A model generated the notes under the pieces. That model did no database searches. It was not told where the DNA came from and saw only the letters and a list, made by a program, of their open reading frames with translations. A stretch of 47,191 nucleotides of DNA, from assembly GCF_000763055.1 (NCBI RefSeq), contig NZ_KN214135.1, positions 417,946 to 465,136 on the forward strand. Direction: 5' to 3'. This DNA comes from Collinsella sp. 4_8_47FAA (GTDB taxonomy: Bacteria > Actinomycetota > Coriobacteriia > Coriobacteriales > Coriobacteriaceae). How positions within the stretch are numbered: the stretch's first letter is position 1; the number at the start of each line of letters is the position of its first letter. The position numbers and the translations under genes were made by a program. Shown piece by piece: positions 14,941 through 46,774 of the stretch.

Positions 14941-14952
14941 GCGACGCGATTA

Positions 14953-15170
14953 TCTCAATCTGTAACATCTAGAGCCCGAATTCCCGTCCAACTGTTACAG
15001 ATCTAGATAAGACGTCTTAGTCCCAGACCTTTGTCTCAATCTGTAACAGATAGAGACCTTTTGGCCGTCCAGATGTTACAGATTGAGACATTCGAATTCC
15101 CCTGAAGAGAAAATCTCGATCTGTAACAGTTAGAACCCATTTCCTCGTCTACCTGTTACAGATTGAGACA
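14953..15170. repeat. Three tandem palindromic repeats TGTAACA-N25-TGTTACA
   Basis: Copy 1 has arms at 14958-14967 and 14993-15002. Copy 2 is a perfect 17-base inverted repeat at 15032-15048 and 15074-15090. Copy 3 lies at 15114-15128 and 15154-15168 with one G-T pair. All three loops are exactly 25 bases. The loops share a TAGA near the start and similar text such as CGTC, but otherwise differ. Copies are about 80 bases apart. They lie between the DXS-like terminator and the promoter of the amino acid importer. The function is unknown. Confidence 0.85.
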
Positions 15171-15202
15171 AAGCAGCGAGGCAGGCCGTCACATCTGCAA
15201 GA

Positions 15203-15352: not shown

Positions 15353-16348
15353 ATGAGCAAGAACCTCTCCCAGCAGGTCGTTCTCGACCGTCGCGGCTTC
15401 GTTGCCGCCACCTTCGCAACCGTCGCCGGCCTTGGTCTTGCCGGCTGCTCCGACACCAGCGCCGAGGCCGACAAGGGTTCCGCCGCCGGTTCCTCCAAGA
15501 GCTCCGAGGATACCGAGGTTTCCGCCACGCTCGATGCCAAGGCATTCGACAAGCTCGTCAACGACGGCCCCAAGGCCGATGACGACGCCATCACCGCCAG
15601 CACCTGGGCCACGGCCGTCAAGGACGCCGGCGTCTTTAAGATCGGTGGCGTTCAGACCTCCACGCTCTTCTCCCTCCTCAACGAGAAAGACGGTCAGACC
15701 CGCGGCTTCGATGCCGGTATCGCACAGCTCCTGTCCAACTACATTCTGGGCGAGAACAAGGTCGAGATCACCCAGGTGACCTCGGACACGCGCGAGTCCG
15801 TCCTGCAGAACGGCCAGGTCGACGCTGTCTTTGCCACCTACACCATCACTGACGAGCGCAAGAAGCTCGTCTCCTTTGCCGGTCCCTATTACTACACGCA
15901 GCAGGCTATCCTGGTGCTCGCCGATAACGACGACATCAAGAGCGTCGACGACCTGGCCGACAAGAACGTCGCCGTCCAGTCCGGCTCCAACGGCCCCGCC
16001 ATCCTGGAGGAGCTCGCTCCCAAGGCCAGCCAGCAGGAGTTCAAGACCGACGAGGAGGCCCGCCAGGCACTCCAGCAGGGTCGTGTTGACGCCTACGTCA
16101 TCGATAACAACATGCAGCAGAGCGCCCTGGTCCGCGAGCCCGGCAAGTACAAGATCGCCGGCAAGCCCTTCGGCAGCAAGGAGCCCTACGGCATCGGTCT
16201 GCCGCTCGATTCCGACGGCGTCGCCTTTGTCAATGACTTCCTTAAGAAGATCGAGGACGACGGCACCTGGACCGAGCTGTGGCAGATCTGCATCGGCGAC
16301 CGTACGGGCGACACCAATGTTCCCGAGCTGCCCGAGATCGGCGCCTAG
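15353..16348 (+). CDS. Polar amino acid ABC transporter, substrate-binding lipoprotein (Tat-type signal)
   Basis: A 331-residue protein of the periplasmic-binding type 3 (SBP_bac_3) family, which captures glutamate, glutamine, aspartate or similar amino acids. The signal peptide carries twin arginines (DRRGFVAAT, 13-14) and a lipobox LAGC with Cys32, so it should be exported folded by Tat and lipid-anchored. A Ser/Ala/Lys/Glu-rich linker follows. The binding domain begins near 85 with FKIGGVQTS and contains RGFDAGIAQLL and the conserved arginine region TSDTRESVLQNGQVDA. It heads an operon with two permeases and an ATPase. A hairpin after it would lift its level over theirs. Ligand: glutamate or a related amino acid (inference). 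Confidence 0.9.
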   Translation: MSKNLSQQVVLDRRGFVAATFATVAGLGLAGCSDTSAEADKGSAAGSSKSSEDTEVSATLDAKAFDKLVNDGPKADDDAITASTWATAVKDAGVFKIGGVQTSTLFSLLNEKDGQTRGFDAGIAQLLSNYILGENKVEITQVTSDTRESVLQNGQVDAVFATYTITDERKKLVSFAGPYYYTQQAILVLADNDDIKSVDDLADKNVAVQSGSNGPAILEELAPKASQQEFKTDEEARQALQQGRVDAYVIDNNMQQSALVREPGKYKIAGKPFGSKEPYGIGLPLDSDGVAFVNDFLKKIEDDGTWTELWQICIGDRTGDTNVPELPEIGA

Positions 16349-24056: not shown

Positions 24057-24127
24057 AGTTGCGGTGATATAGTTCCTATTTATGCTGTTAAACCGCTTAA
24101 ATCGGAACTATATCACCGCAACTTTTA
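24057..24127 (+). terminator. Long-stem terminator after the radical SAM gene
   Basis: A perfect 20-base inverted repeat (24057-24076 and 24104-24123, inner end GTTCC/GGAAC) with a 27-base loop, followed by TTTAT. The stem is unusually long and symmetric for a terminator and recalls the palindromes at 14953 and 45510. Confidence 0.7.
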
Positions 24128-26170: not shown

Positions 26171-26272
26171 CGAGCCCGCCAGAGCGGCAATCTGACGTTC
26201 AATCGTCGGGCATGGCCAAAAGGCCTATGCCCTCCTCTTTCACGTCACCTTGCTCGCTCTGGCGGGCTCTCG
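26171..26272. repeat. Type II nested hairpin element between convergent genes
   Basis: Outer arms 26172-26186 (GAGCCCGCCAGAGCG) and 26255-26269, perfect over 15 bases. Then GCAA/TTGC, TGACGT (26193-26198)/ACGTCA (26242-26247), and an inner GGGCATGGCC/GGCCTATGCCC hairpin with an AAAA loop. The unpaired segments TCAATCGTCG (left) and CTCCTCTTTC (right) match those of the element at 9753 read on its minus strand, while all the stems differ. It lies between the dehydrogenase and the M18 aminopeptidase. The stretch 26280-26374 holds nothing I recognise. Confidence 0.75.
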
Positions 26273-29183: not shown

Positions 29184-30263
29184 ATGCTTAGGATCGGTCT
29201 TCTTACTAGTGGCGGCGACTGCCAGGCGCTCAACGCCACCATGCGCGGCATTGTCAAAACGCTTATGACCAATAGCGAAGAACCTATCGAGATTTATGGC
29301 TTTGAGGACGGCTATCAGGGCCTTATCTACAGCAGGTTCCGCGTCATGACGCCCGCCGATTTTAGCGGCATCCTCACCCGCGGCGGCACCATCCTGGGCA
29401 CGAGCCGCACACCGTTCAAGCGTCTGGATACCCCCGAGGCCGATGGTGTCGAGAAGGTGCCGGCGATGGTCCACACCTATCATAAGCTGCAGCTCGACTG
29501 CCTGTTTATGCTGGGCGGTAACGGCTCCACCAAGACCGCCAACCGCCTGCGCGAAGAGGGCCTCAACGTTATCGCGCTGCCCAAGACCATCGATAACGAC
29601 ACCTGGGGCACCGAGCTGACGTTTGGCTTTACGAGCGCCATCGACGTCGCCACCAAGTGCATCGACGACATTCACACCACCGCTTCGAGCCACGGCCGCG
29701 TGTTCGTTATCGAGATCATGGGCCACAAGGTTGGCTGGATTCCACTGTACGCCGGCGTCGCGGGCGGCGCGGACGTCATCCTGATTCCAGAGATCCCTTA
29801 CGACATGGAAAACGTCATCAAGACCATCGAACATCGCATGGAGACCGGCAGCCGCTTTACCATCGTGGCCGTCGCCGAGGGCGCTATCTCCAAGGAGGAC
29901 GCGGCTCTGTCCAAGAAAGAGTACAAGAAGAAGCTCGCCGAGCGCACGAGCCCGTCGATTGTCTACGACATCGCCAAGGAGATCGAAGCCAAGACCGGTC
30001 GCGAGACCCGCGTCGCCATCCCCGGTCACACGCAGCGCGGCGGTCAGCCCGACGCCCAGGACCGCATCTTTGCGACCCAGTGCGGCGTCGAGGCGGCTCT
30101 CGGCTGCCTACGCGGCGAGTTTGGCTACATGATTGCCCTGCGCGACGGCAAGATGTGCCACATGCCGCTCGAGGATGTCGCCGGCAAGCTCAAGTATGTC
30201 GATCCCCAGAGCGATCTGGTGCGCGAGGCCAAGGCGTTGGGCATCAGCTTCGGCGACGAATAG
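29184..30263 (+). CDS. pfkA: 6-phosphofructokinase (actinobacterial/clostridial type)
   Basis: A 359-residue protein phosphorylating fructose 6-phosphate in glycolysis. Substrate site PKTIDND (133-139) has the catalytic Asp137, with IPGHTQRGG and MGHKVGW also conserved. The Gly at position 114 (GGNGS) corresponds to Gly104 of E. coli PfkA, which marks ATP rather than pyrophosphate use. Lys134 is the residue common to PPi enzymes and actinobacterial ATP enzymes. The Asp that normally comes before that Gly is Asn113. CGGAAGG precedes the ATG. It is a single gene followed by a type I hairpin element. Confidence 0.92.
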   Translation: MLRIGLLTSGGDCQALNATMRGIVKTLMTNSEEPIEIYGFEDGYQGLIYSRFRVMTPADFSGILTRGGTILGTSRTPFKRLDTPEADGVEKVPAMVHTYHKLQLDCLFMLGGNGSTKTANRLREEGLNVIALPKTIDNDTWGTELTFGFTSAIDVATKCIDDIHTTASSHGRVFVIEIMGHKVGWIPLYAGVAGGADVILIPEIPYDMENVIKTIEHRMETGSRFTIVAVAEGAISKEDAALSKKEYKKKLAERTSPSIVYDIAKEIEAKTGRETRVAIPGHTQRGGQPDAQDRIFATQCGVEAALGCLRGEFGYMIALRDGKMCHMPLEDVAGKLKYVDPQSDLVREAKALGISFGDE

Positions 30264-30286
30264 CCTCGGCCGAAACTGCTCTCATC

Positions 30287-30407
30287 GGAGGCCCCAGGGC
30301 TTACCTCCCAAATCGTCCTCGGACATGTCAGGATCCCGCCGTGTGCTTCGCGCGGCGGGATCCTTCCGTCCTGCGGAAAGATTTGGGAGGTAAGCCCTGG
30401 GGCCTCC
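30287..30407. repeat. Type I nested hairpin element after pfkA
   Basis: A perfect 27-base outer stem (30287-30313 with 30381-30407) and an inner hairpin of about 16 pairs (30330-30345 with 30349-30364) with a CTTCG-type loop. Between them, the left segment CGTCCTCGGACATG (30314-30327) and right segment CGTCCTGCGGAAAG (30367-30380) are identical to those of the element at 42936. GGAC on the left can pair with GTCC on the right. Confidence 0.85.
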
Positions 30408-37477: not shown

Positions 37478-37607
37478 GGCGGGGGCCGGGCTTAGCTTTC
37501 AGAACACTCCGCAGACCAGTGTGGCGCCTTGTCCGCGGCTCCGAAGGAGCAGGACAAGGCGCCACACATGGTCGAGGACGTTCTGAAAACTAAGCCCGGC
37601 CCCCGCC
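37478..37607. repeat. Type I nested hairpin element, diverged copy, downstream of asd
   Basis: A 28-base outer stem (37478-37505 with 37580-37607) with one mismatch that becomes a G-U pair on the minus strand. The inner hairpin TGTGGCGCCTTGTCC pairs with GGACAAGGCGCCACA. On the minus strand the left segment is CGTCCTCGACCATG and the right segment contains GGTCTGCGGA, close to the elements at 30287 and 42936. The stems are unrelated to theirs. GACCA and TGGTC can pair, replacing GGAC/GTCC. It lies 12 bases past the asd stop codon. Confidence 0.8.
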
Positions 37608-37619
37608 GGACAGGCCACA

Positions 37620-38645
37620 CTACTCGCAGAGCAGCTTAGCGATCTGGACGGCGTTGGTTGCCGCGCCCTTACGGATTTGGTCGCCGCAGCACCAGAAGGT
37701 GATACCGCGCGCGGCCTCGGGGTTCGAGATGTCGCGACGCACGCGGCCGACCCAAATCAGGTCCTGGTCGGAGGTGTCCATCGGCATGGGGAAGCGATCG
37801 TGCGCATCCTCGGCAGCCATATCGTCAACCAGCTTGACGCCGGGAGCGGCAGCCAGCGCAGCACGGGCCTCCTCGACCGTAATATCGCGCTCAAACTCGA
37901 GCGTAATGCTCTCGGAGTGCGAACGCAGCACGGGCACGCGCACGCAGGTGCAGTTCACGCGCAGCTCGGGCAGGTGCATAATCTTGCGGCCCTCGTTTTG
38001 CAGCTTCATCTCCTCGGAGGTAAAGCCCTCCTCCTTGACGCCGCCAATCTGCGGAATCAGGTTGCTCGCCAGCTGGGCGGCAAAAGCACGCGGCTCGGGA
38101 ATCTCCTCGCCACGGCCCAGGGCGGCAAGCTGCGCTTCGAGCTCGGCCATACCGGGAGCACCGGCACCAGAAGCCGCCTGATACGTCGAGACGATCATGC
38201 GCTTCACGCCGGCAAGCTGATGCAGCGGCCACGTGGGAACCAGGCCGATGATGGTCGCGCAGTTGGGATTGGCGATAAGGCCGTGATGCCATTTGATATC
38301 GTCGGCATTGATCTCGGGCACGACCAGCGGCACCTCGGGATCCATGCGGAAGGCGTGGCTGTTGTCGACCACGACGGCGCCGCGCTTGACGGCCTCGGGC
38401 AGCAGCTCCTTGGCGATATCGTCGCCGGCAGCGCCGAGCACGATGTCGCAGCCCTCAAAGGCCTCGGGGCAAGCCTCTTCAATCACAACCTGCTCGCCGC
38501 GGAACTCAACGGTCTTGCCCGCAGAGCGCGCGCTCGCCAGCAGCTTGAGCTTACCGACCGGAAACTCCTGCTCGTTGAGGCACTCGAGCATCTGGGTGCC
38601 CACGGCTCCCGTCGCGCCCAAAATAGCAACCGTGTACTGTTTCAT
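37620..38645 (-). CDS. asd: Aspartate-semialdehyde dehydrogenase
   Basis: A 341-residue NADPH-dependent enzyme making aspartate semialdehyde from aspartyl phosphate. It has the N-terminal GATGAVGTQML nucleotide motif (10-20), catalytic Cys129 in IANPNCATI, and a conserved RSHSES region with the active-site His. The frame is open upstream, but the ATG at 38645 has AAAGGGGG just ahead and starts at the nucleotide fold. It follows lysC on the same strand; the two encode consecutive steps. Confidence 0.95.
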   Translation of the reverse strand: MKQYTVAILGATGAVGTQMLECLNEQEFPVGKLKLLASARSAGKTVEFRGEQVVIEEACPEAFEGCDIVLGAAGDDIAKELLPEAVKRGAVVVDNSHAFRMDPEVPLVVPEINADDIKWHHGLIANPNCATIIGLVPTWPLHQLAGVKRMIVSTYQAASGAGAPGMAELEAQLAALGRGEEIPEPRAFAAQLASNLIPQIGGVKEEGFTSEEMKLQNEGRKIMHLPELRVNCTCVRVPVLRSHSESITLEFERDITVEEARAALAAAPGVKLVDDMAAEDAHDRFPMPMDTSDQDLIWVGRVRRDISNPEAARGITFWCCGDQIRKGAATNAVQIAKLLCE

Positions 38646-38719
38646 GCTTCCCCCTTTAAAGGTTGTGGCTTTTGCCCGCACGCCGAGCAGGCCGATTATT
38701 GTTGCCAGTGTATACAAGA

Positions 38720-38746
38720 ACGGGGCGGGCACGAAACCCGCCCCGT
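38720..38746 (-). terminator. Hairpin between lysC and asd
   Basis: ACGGGGCGGG (38720-38729) pairs with CCCGCCCCGT (38737-38746); on the minus strand it is followed by TCTTGT. It may partly end the lysC transcript. CGAAAC recurs four times next to it (38747-38770). Confidence 0.7.
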
Positions 38747-41906: not shown

Positions 41907-42018
41907 GCGGGTCTGGCCGTTTAGTTCGTCGCGAGTTCCGCACGAGCCGGAAAGCACTTAATGTGCTTTCCGAGCGAGCCAGGACTGCCCGAGCAGCGAA
42001 CTAAACGGCCAGACCCGC
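41907..42018. repeat. Nested hairpin element directly ahead of thrB (possible type I relative)
   Basis: A perfect 22-base outer stem (41907-41928 with 41997-42018) and inner hairpin CGGAAAGCAC (41948-41957) with GTGCTTTCCG (41963-41972). Read on the minus strand, the internal segments contain GTCCTGG on the left and TGCGGAACT on the right, a faint match to type I. The outer stem ends 3 bases before the AGGAGG ribosome site of thrB, so folding could influence its translation. Confidence 0.65.
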
Positions 42019-42032
42019 CCAGGAGGACCCAC

Positions 42033-42914
42033 ATGATCAAAATCACCGTCCCAGCAACCAGCGCCAACCTAGGCATCGGCTACGACACCCTCGGCATGGC
42101 CGTCAGCCTCTACTCGCACTTCACCTTCGAGCGCGCCGACAAGCTCACCATCACGGGCTGCCCCGAGGAGTTCCAAAACGAGAATAACCTGGTCTATGTG
42201 AGCTTTGTCGATGCTCTGGCCGCGTGGGGCGAGACAGCTTTCCCCGTTGCCATCGACATTCAAACCGACGTGCCCGTCGCCCGCGGCCTGGGCTCCAGCT
42301 CCACCTGCGTCGTCGCCGGCATCATGGCAGCCGCCGCACTGACGGGCCACACCGTCGACCGTGCCGAGCTTGTTCGCATTGCCACCGAAGTCGAGGGGCA
42401 TCCTGATAACGTCGCTCCCGCCATCCTTGGCGGCGCCGTCTGCTCCTTTACGCCGACCAATTCGCTCCCCCAATGTCTGCGCTACGAGGTGAGCGATCGC
42501 TTGCGTTTTATTACCGTGATTCCGCCCTACGAGGTACATACGAGCGAGGCGCGCAAGGTCGTGCCGCAGGAGATTCCACTCTCCACCGCCGTATGGCAAA
42601 TGGGCCGCATCGCCGGCATGACGCGCGGCCTGGAGACCGGCGGCCTTGACCTGATTGCCGCCGCCAACGACGACCGCATCCAGGAGCCCTATCGCCGCCG
42701 CCTCATCCCCGACTACAACGCCGTGCGCGACACCTGCCTTAACGGAGGCGCCAAGACCATCTGGATCAGTGGCTCCGGCTCGACCCTCATGGCCGTGACT
42801 GACGACACCATCGTGGCGAAGTTCCTGCAGGTCAAGCTGCGCGAGCAGTTCCCCAAGTGTGACACGCACATTCTGACGTGCGACACCGAGGGCGCCCAGA
42901 TCGAATACCTGTAG
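42033..42914 (+). CDS. thrB: Homoserine kinase
   Basis: A 293-residue GHMP kinase that makes O-phosphohomoserine for ThrC. The N-terminal PATSANLGIGYDTLG and the ATP loop PVARGLGSSSTC (81-92) are diagnostic; EGHPDNVAPAILGG and SGSGST near the end complete the fold. An ATG at 42033 with AGGAGG is clear. It sits between two long hairpin elements. Homoserine dehydrogenase, needed between asd and this step, is not in the window. Confidence 0.96.
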   Translation: MIKITVPATSANLGIGYDTLGMAVSLYSHFTFERADKLTITGCPEEFQNENNLVYVSFVDALAAWGETAFPVAIDIQTDVPVARGLGSSSTCVVAGIMAAAALTGHTVDRAELVRIATEVEGHPDNVAPAILGGAVCSFTPTNSLPQCLRYEVSDRLRFITVIPPYEVHTSEARKVVPQEIPLSTAVWQMGRIAGMTRGLETGGLDLIAAANDDRIQEPYRRRLIPDYNAVRDTCLNGGAKTIWISGSGSTLMAVTDDTIVAKFLQVKLREQFPKCDTHILTCDTEGAQIEYL

Positions 42915-42935
42915 TCGCCGTCCCGTATACTCGCC

Positions 42936-43060
42936 GGGGAGGCCAGGGGCTTTGCCCCCAAATCGTCCTCGGACATGGCAGGACCCCCGCTGTGCACTTC
43001 GTGCGGCGGGGGTCCTGCCGTCCTGCGGAAAGATTTGGGGGCAAAGCCCCTGGCCTCCCC
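42936..43060. repeat. Type I nested hairpin element after thrB
   Basis: A perfect 28-base outer stem (42936-42963 with 43033-43060). The inner stem is GCAGGACCCCCGC (42978-42990) with GCGGGGGTCCTGC (43006-43018). The internal segments are CGTCCTCGGACATG (42964-42977) and CGTCCTGCGGAAAG (43019-43032). It sits between the convergent thrB and engB genes. Confidence 0.85.
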
Positions 43061-43150
43061 TATGTTAACTTCGCCGGCGGCGGCTACAGGGACCTACACT
43101 CTGGAAAGTCGCCGGGCTGATGTTCTGCATTTTATTGATAGGGGCCCTTA

Positions 43151-46734: not shown

Positions 46735-46774
46735 TTCCCACATTCATCCGCACATGTGCGGATGAATGTGGGAA
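46735..46774. repeat. Perfect 40-base palindrome upstream of the IS30 transposase
   Basis: TTCCCACATTCATCCGCACA (46735-46754) is followed at once by its exact reverse complement (46755-46774), with no loop. A partial third copy of TTCATCCG lies just before it (46722-46729). It is 51 bases ahead of the transposase start. It could be the element's inverted end placed against another end, or the palindromic type of target that IS30 elements prefer. Confidence 0.7.

What the first reader, a model, noticed from the sequence alone, without database searches (positions are those of the whole stretch)
42936..43060. Type I giant nested hairpin with conserved internal segments: a repeated structured element
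The copies at 30287-30407 and 42936-43060 have perfect outer stems of 27 and 28 bases whose sequences differ by matched changes on both arms, and inner stems that also differ. Yet the 14-base internal segments (CGTCCTCGGACATG and CGTCCTGCGGAAAG) are identical. Paired changes in stems with fixed internal loops are the mark of selection on shape. Both copies lie at 3' ends between convergent genes. I do not know a described family with this layout.
Basis: partly seen in the sequence, partly recalled or inferred. Interest (0 to 1): 0.82.

Follow-up and report, generated by a model that had tools for sequence, protein, structure and literature searches.

The report
Capped giant hairpins behind bacterial genes
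Behind many genes of Collinsella and of some gut and rumen Clostridia sits a long hairpin whose two arms change together while a small sequence near its tip stays fixed, which looks like an undescribed signal at the ends of messages.

Summary
The hairpin at 42936-43060 is one of 13 full-length copies in its genome (a Collinsella); a third window copy lies at 37478-37607, minus strand. The fixed part is small: GTCCTC facing TGCGGA; the adjoining GGAC/GTCC is helix and covaries. A scan of 84,980 genomes for the compact core hit Collinsella, Enorma, Slackia and 11 Bacillota MAG contigs. In the order of one of these, 100 of 188 genomes hold the looser pattern, 48 copies in the richest against 0 for the reversed pattern. 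In 19 of 23 Coriobacteriia site clusters a sense stop codon lies 7-38 nt upstream. In Bacillota the arms hold an A-tract and T-tract, as in two-way intrinsic terminators; in Coriobacteriia they do not. No Rfam match. Best reading: a structured 3'-end RNA element (terminator or 3'-end protector) with a sequence-specific cap. Transcription, termination and a cap-reading factor are inferred, not shown. Against it: a wobble-pair strand test is not significant, and a Y1 transposase is present in 11 of 11 Collinsella carriers tested (3 of 8 non-carriers), though absent from the richest Bacillota carriers.

The parts
42936..42964 (+). outer stem, left arm (29 bp, perfect)
42965..42970 (+). cap, 5' side: GTCCTC
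42971..43023 (+). variable terminal hairpin closed by GGAC/GTCC, with AT bulge on the 5' side
43024..43029 (+). cap, 3' side: TGCGGA
43032..43060 (+). outer stem, right arm
42908..42920 (+). third layer, left: CCTGTAGTCGCCG, contains the stop codon of the GHMP-kinase gene
   Evidence: above 95% of mismatched flanks
43078..43090 (+). third layer, right partner CGGCGGCTACAGG
41961..42914 (+). upstream gene: GHMP kinase (homoserine kinase by eye), stop 21 nt before the hairpin
30287..30407 (+). second copy: arms 30287-30314/30380-30407, GTCCTC 30315-30320, TGCGGA 30372-30377
30255..30271 (+). third layer of the second copy, left: end of the phosphofructokinase gene with stop codon
30423..30439 (+). 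third layer of the second copy, right
29184..30263 (+). upstream gene: phosphofructokinase, stop 23 nt before the hairpin
37478..37607 (-). third copy, reverse strand
37620..38732 (-). upstream gene of the third copy: semialdehyde dehydrogenase, stop 12 nt before the hairpin

Best explanation
A structured element of messenger 3' ends. SHOWN: a long hairpin begins a few tens of bases after a stop codon, mostly in the sense direction of the gene before it; its arms are free in sequence but stay complementary; near the tip a fixed asymmetric internal loop (GTCCTC/TGCGGA; in predicted folds a U-C mismatch, a bulged U and unpaired A-side bases) carries a variable terminal hairpin. INFERRED: it is transcribed as the end of the message and works as RNA. 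In Bacillota, where the arms hold an A-tract and a T-tract, it ends transcription as an intrinsic, probably two-way terminator. In Collinsella, without a T-tract, it more likely blocks 3' exonucleases after factor-dependent termination or marks a processing site. The fixed cap is probably read by a conserved factor, still unknown.
For: Covariation of stems (39 of 52 pairs) and of the cap's inner helix across two phyla (99.1% of cells paired against 86.0% shuffled, 40 caps). Place: sense stop 7-38 nt upstream in 19 of 23 clusters; with 100 open codons and 60 nt, 18 of 23 sense against 2 of 23 reverse; 12 of 14 own sites follow a Pfam-confirmed gene. Persistence: the GHMP-kinase and semialdehyde-dehydrogenase ends carry it in the own clade and in C. 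tanakaei contigs with different stems. Bacillota: T 0.61 and 0.52 at +12 to +19 of the right arm against 0.26 background, n=58.
Against: No RNA data. Wobble pairs in outer stems show no significant strand preference (sense/antisense 78/67 in 54 Bacillota hairpins, p=0.54; 29/12 in 23 Coriobacteriia sites, p=0.09). In Bacillota direction is only biased (24 sense-only, 10 reverse-only, p=0.024) and reverse stops (18 of 49) also exceed random positions (208 of 1160 for sense stops). Coriobacteriia copies have no T-tract (T5 in 0 of 139). Two of 14 own sites follow no recognised gene. Patchy occurrence and lineage-specific amplified caps, for example G221, would also suit a mobile repeat.
Confidence: 0.5

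Rival explanations
1. A mobile or amplifying hairpin repeat (REP/REPIN- or MITE-like) that settles near gene ends; the cap is the recognition site of a transposase acting on folded single-stranded DNA.
For: Many dispersed copies; near-identical caps amplified within single genomes; patchy occurrence; inner hairpins shared by different sites (3 of 64 inner sequences). Y1_Tnp (PF01797) is present in 11 of 11 Collinsella carriers tested and in 3 of 8 genus members chosen for lacking R1 matches.
Against: Y1_Tnp is absent from the Bacillota carriers G399, G400, G402 and G403, among them the richest. Copies stay at the same gene ends in distant species while stems change (argG-like ends in two Bacillota genomes). 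Direction follows the upstream gene. Other transposase families were not tested.
Confidence: 0.2
2. A DNA-level site: cruciform or folded single strand bound by a DNA protein; the message plays no part.
For: Wobble pairs are rare in outer stems and show no significant strand preference.
Against: Place and direction follow the upstream gene; terminator-like A/T tracts in Bacillota.
Confidence: 0.12
3. Palindromes made and kept perfect by template switching in replication, without function.
For: L010 is fully symmetric while orthologs keep the asymmetric cap, as after one arm was copied from the other. The mechanism is described in PMC8794818 (abstract seen).
Against: Two-arm changes between nearest orthologs are mostly single bases (23 of 26 runs) beside many one-arm intermediates; the fixed asymmetric cap would be erased by repeated arm copying.
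Confidence: 0.08
4. Ordinary two-way terminators or 3' hairpins; the cap is an accident of descent without its own role.
For: Terminator-like tracts in Bacillota; other hairpin types occupy the same slot in some genomes (L139, L142-L144).
Against: The same cap in two phyla on unrelated stems, with a covarying inner helix.
Confidence: 0.1

Closest known systems
Intrinsic (Rho-independent), two-way terminators
   Same: Hairpin behind genes; in Bacillota an A-tract before and a T-tract after.
   Different: Sequence-specific cap; no T-tract in Coriobacteriia; stems far longer than usual (recalled).
REP/BIME, ERIC and other stem-loop repeat families (PMC2267715, abstract and one section seen)
   Same: Dispersed intergenic hairpin repeats.
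   Different: There the repeat sequence itself is conserved (recalled for REP); here stems are free and only the cap is fixed; no Y1 transposase in the richest Bacillota carriers.
Palindromic candidate structured RNAs of human microbiomes (PMC8040213, passages seen)
   Same: Two-strand hairpins, many predicted as terminators; a source in which this motif could already be listed.
   Different: The passages seen name no such cap; the tables could not be opened.
Eukaryotic histone 3' stem-loop with its binding protein (recalled)
   Same: In logic: a conserved hairpin at many message ends that a factor may read.
   Different: No factor is known here; other organisms and sequence.

Membership tests
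Any Rfam 15 family | match at the gathering score | tested here: not met
   0 matches in the window; in seven carrier loci no match near a gathering score, best E 0.033 to a microRNA model
Intrinsic terminator | hairpin followed by a T-tract, Bacillota copies | tested here: met
   T-rich right arm; T5 or longer in 31 of 58; termination itself not tested
Intrinsic terminator | hairpin followed by a T-tract, Coriobacteriia copies | tested here: not met
   T5 in 0 of 139
REP/REPIN with RAYT | Y1 transposase in carrier genomes | tested here: inconclusive
   present in 11 of 11 Collinsella carriers tested, absent from G399, G400, G402, G403
REP/REPIN with RAYT | conserved palindrome sequence | tested here: not met
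   stems differ between sites with 39 of 52 pairs changed on both sides
MITE / insertion sequence | fixed terminal repeats and precise empty sites | tested here: inconclusive
   no common terminal repeat sequence; orthologous slots show replacement, a remnant or loss, no precise empty site was established
Integron attC site | R and L boxes, cassette arrays, integrase | not tested
   set aside from recalled features and from the position behind housekeeping genes

The most novel reading that the evidence does not exclude
A cap-reading factor shared by Coriobacteriia and Clostridia recognises GUCCUC/UGCGGA at the 3' ends of tens of messages per genome and controls their termination, processing or life span: in logic a bacterial counterpart of the histone 3' stem-loop system, with the long free stem serving only to present the cap.
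Probability: 0.25. Interest if true: 0.9.

Novelty: new variant of a known kind. Interest (0 to 1): 0.72.

Why it matters
A sequence-specific motif on otherwise free hairpins behind genes such as phosphofructokinase, aldolase, chaperonin and PEP carboxylase, found in two phyla and absent from Rfam 15, points to an unknown layer of control at bacterial message ends. It is directly testable: 3'-end maps of gut Collinsella or rumen Clostridia and a pull-down with the cap would show what it does.

Tried and rejected
Rejected or set aside: (1) Template switching as the whole cause, although L010 shows one arm conversion. (2) RAYT/REPIN: weakened, not excluded; other transposases were not tested. 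(3) A first wobble-pair count seemed to show strong sense bias because flanks and core were included; restricted to outer stems it is not significant, so I do not use it. (4) The gene-direction table compared frames without stop codons and is biased in G+C-rich DNA; discarded and replaced. (5) Phage carriage: three viral scans without a match and one hit that lies among long ORFs without a long capped hairpin. (6) Searches of the open paper library gave no description of the motif; most subscription papers are not held and supplementary tables could not be opened.

Limits of the counts: the cap letters are constant partly because I searched for them. One search's pattern also favours a paired inner helix, and caps were kept only with at least 3 inner and 14 outer pairs. 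One search prints only hits with at least three inner pairs, so not all 40 stretches appear. The Bacillota set may hold a few Coriobacteriia or chance rows (among L283-L312 and L371); eight such loci and L371 were left out. Lists of places were cut by the tool; tallies are whole. In one search many matches in other families are probably chance, so 185 of 386 is no count of carriers. The 23 clusters may split two sites (L004/L187, L007+/L189). My notebook says 20 of 23 with a sense stop; recounted it is 19.

Scripts that failed: time limit; redone; error; replaced; error; redone.

Full report
CHECK. The hairpin at 42936-43060 and its copy at 30287-30407 are as described: outer stems of 29 and 28 perfect pairs and identical 14-base segments inside. 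A third copy lies at 37478-37607 on the minus strand. A covariance model (R1) built from 12 own copies finds 13 full-length places in the own genome and five weaker ones: an inner part without outer stem, compact copies, and one of a different hairpin type. The genus is Collinsella: loci of same-genus genomes lie on contigs of the same length as ones titled Collinsella tanakaei.

ANATOMY. Read in the sense of the upstream gene: an outer stem of about 28 nearly always perfect pairs whose sequence differs between sites; GTCCTC; a helix GGAC/GTCC that covaries (GACCA/TGGTC, GCAC/GTGC); an AT bulge; a variable inner stem; the other side with TGCGGA; the outer right arm. On 12 own copies 39 of 52 pairs change on both sides and 94.3% of cells pair, against 69.8% in shuffles and at most 55.1% when slid. 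In distant relatives the inner part shrinks to GTCCTC-GNCC-NNN-GGNC-TGCGGAAT, on stems of up to 46 bp. In 9 of 23 site clusters a further layer outside the stem pairs better than 95% of mismatched flanks, in some with coding sequence of the gene end.

POSITION. In 19 of 23 Coriobacteriia site clusters a sense stop codon with at least 90 open codons lies 7-38 nt upstream. With 100 codons and 60 nt it is 18 of 23 in sense and 2 of 23 in reverse. In the own genome 12 of 14 sites follow a Pfam-confirmed gene: GHMP kinase, phosphofructokinase, semialdehyde dehydrogenase, TPP enzyme, class II aldolase, oligopeptide ABC ATPase, class IV aminotransferase, glycyl radical protein, MIP channel, chaperonin, a hydrolase (P-type ATPase by eye) and PEP carboxylase. 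The two without are L004 and the copy at L007 1163-1288; near the latter is a tRNA-Leu gene on the other strand.

EVOLUTION. Behind the phosphofructokinase and GHMP-kinase genes, the orthologs read hold the element, the element with other stems, another hairpin with similar flanks (L139, L142-L144), a remnant (L109) or no such hairpin (L141). Among distinct arms at the same site, nearest neighbours differ at 54 positions on one arm and 30 on both, the latter mostly single bases (23 of 26 runs). One own copy, L010, is fully symmetric while orthologs keep the asymmetric cap. The GHMP-kinase end in C. tanakaei and other Collinsella contigs (L121, L245, L257, L265) and the semialdehyde-dehydrogenase end in L091 carry compact elements with different stems. 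Of eight loci fetched with the GHMP-kinase region outside the clade (one of them, L120, by the downstream gene) two carry a cap; of eight phosphofructokinase loci none does.

DISTRIBUTION. R1 matches 34 of 43 genomes of the genus at E 1e-6 and 38 of 396 of the class. The compact core, scanned in 84,980 genomes, hits 44 stretches: 29 titled Collinsella, one each Enorma, Slackia and Candidatus Limicola, 11 Bacillota MAG contigs (some near-duplicates) and one Treponema MAG. GTCCTCN{9,34}TGCGGA occurs 50, 36 and 63 times in G399, G400 and G403 against 11, 4 and 15 for the reversed pattern; in G402 15 against 3 and in the Collinsella G407 36 against 14; little or no excess in G401 (16/9), G404 (12/8), G406 (14/9) and the Treponema genome G405 (8/7). 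In the order of G400 (Mageeibacillus sp. UBA3781, Clostridia by NCBI) GTCCTCGN{7,13}CTGCGGA is in 100 of 188 genomes, 48 in the richest against 0 for the control. In the class the clear excess is in the own family, for example G102 (20 against 1), G285 (19 against 0) and G311 (17 against 0), and in isolated genomes such as G221 (26 against 0) and G349 (16 against 1).

BACILLOTA COPIES. Forty stretches were fetched, 37 from two Bacillota genomes and 3 from G407. The cap sits on long stems with an A-tract in the left and a T-tract in the right arm (T 0.61 and 0.52 at +12 to +19, background 0.26, n=58), as in two-way intrinsic terminators; Coriobacteriia copies lack it (T5 in 0 of 139). Of 49 sites, 24 have a sense stop only within 80 nt, 10 a reverse stop only, 8 both, 7 neither (p=0.024 for direction); at random positions a sense stop is found in 208 of 1160. 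argG-like ends carry it in G400 and G403 (L315, L349), truA-like ends too (L335 by Pfam; L271 by eye). In L336 two copies face each other, each in the sense of its own upstream ORF.

CAP COVARIATION. On 40 distinct 25-base caps of both phyla 99.1% of cells pair against 86.0% in shuffles; four of eight pairs change on both sides, all in the inner helix; three never vary. Constancy of GTCCTC and TG-GG is in part imposed by the search.

WHAT IT IS. Fixed cap, free but paired stems, and place and direction set by the upstream gene fit a structured 3'-end RNA element best. Against it stand the missing RNA data, the lack of a significant wobble-pair strand bias, reversed copies, and patchy occurrence. 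The mobile-repeat rival has amplified lineage-specific caps and a Y1 transposase in 11 of 11 Collinsella carriers tested (3 of 8 non-carriers) on its side, but the carriers G399, G400, G402 and G403 have none. Rfam has no match. Papers seen: abstract of PMC8794818, passages of PMC8040213, abstract and one section of PMC2267715; PMC1590033 only as a listing.

Noticed in passing
window 41907-42018; L063 near 1461-1640: A second type of giant hairpin (22-bp perfect outer stem in the window) with a related-looking inner motif, AGTCCTG...GTGCGGAACT on the minus strand.
   Followed up: partly
window 26172-26269; L012 16016-16109: Another repeated long hairpin with conserved arms (CCCGCCAGAGCG...), between genes.
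   Followed up: no
window 24057-24123; also behind the phosphofructokinase gene in L141 and others: A 67-base inverted repeat (AGTTGCGGTGATATAGTTCC...) similar to one seen at the phosphofructokinase slot of related genomes.
   Followed up: no
window 14947-15173: A cluster of inverted and direct copies of TCTCAATCTGTAACA upstream of the ORF at 15353.
   Followed up: no
L139, L142, L143, L144 behind the phosphofructokinase gene: A different nested hairpin occupies the slot with similar flanks, as if tops of hairpins were exchanged.
   Followed up: partly
L010 891-1015: A copy with 55-base fully complementary arms; the cap has become symmetric, as after copying of one arm onto the other.
   Followed up: partly
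L012 6521-6587 and 6630-6733: Two neighbouring elements; one has lost its left arm beside a compact newer-looking hairpin.
   Followed up: partly
window 46735-46774: Perfect 20+20 base palindrome without spacer.
   Followed up: no
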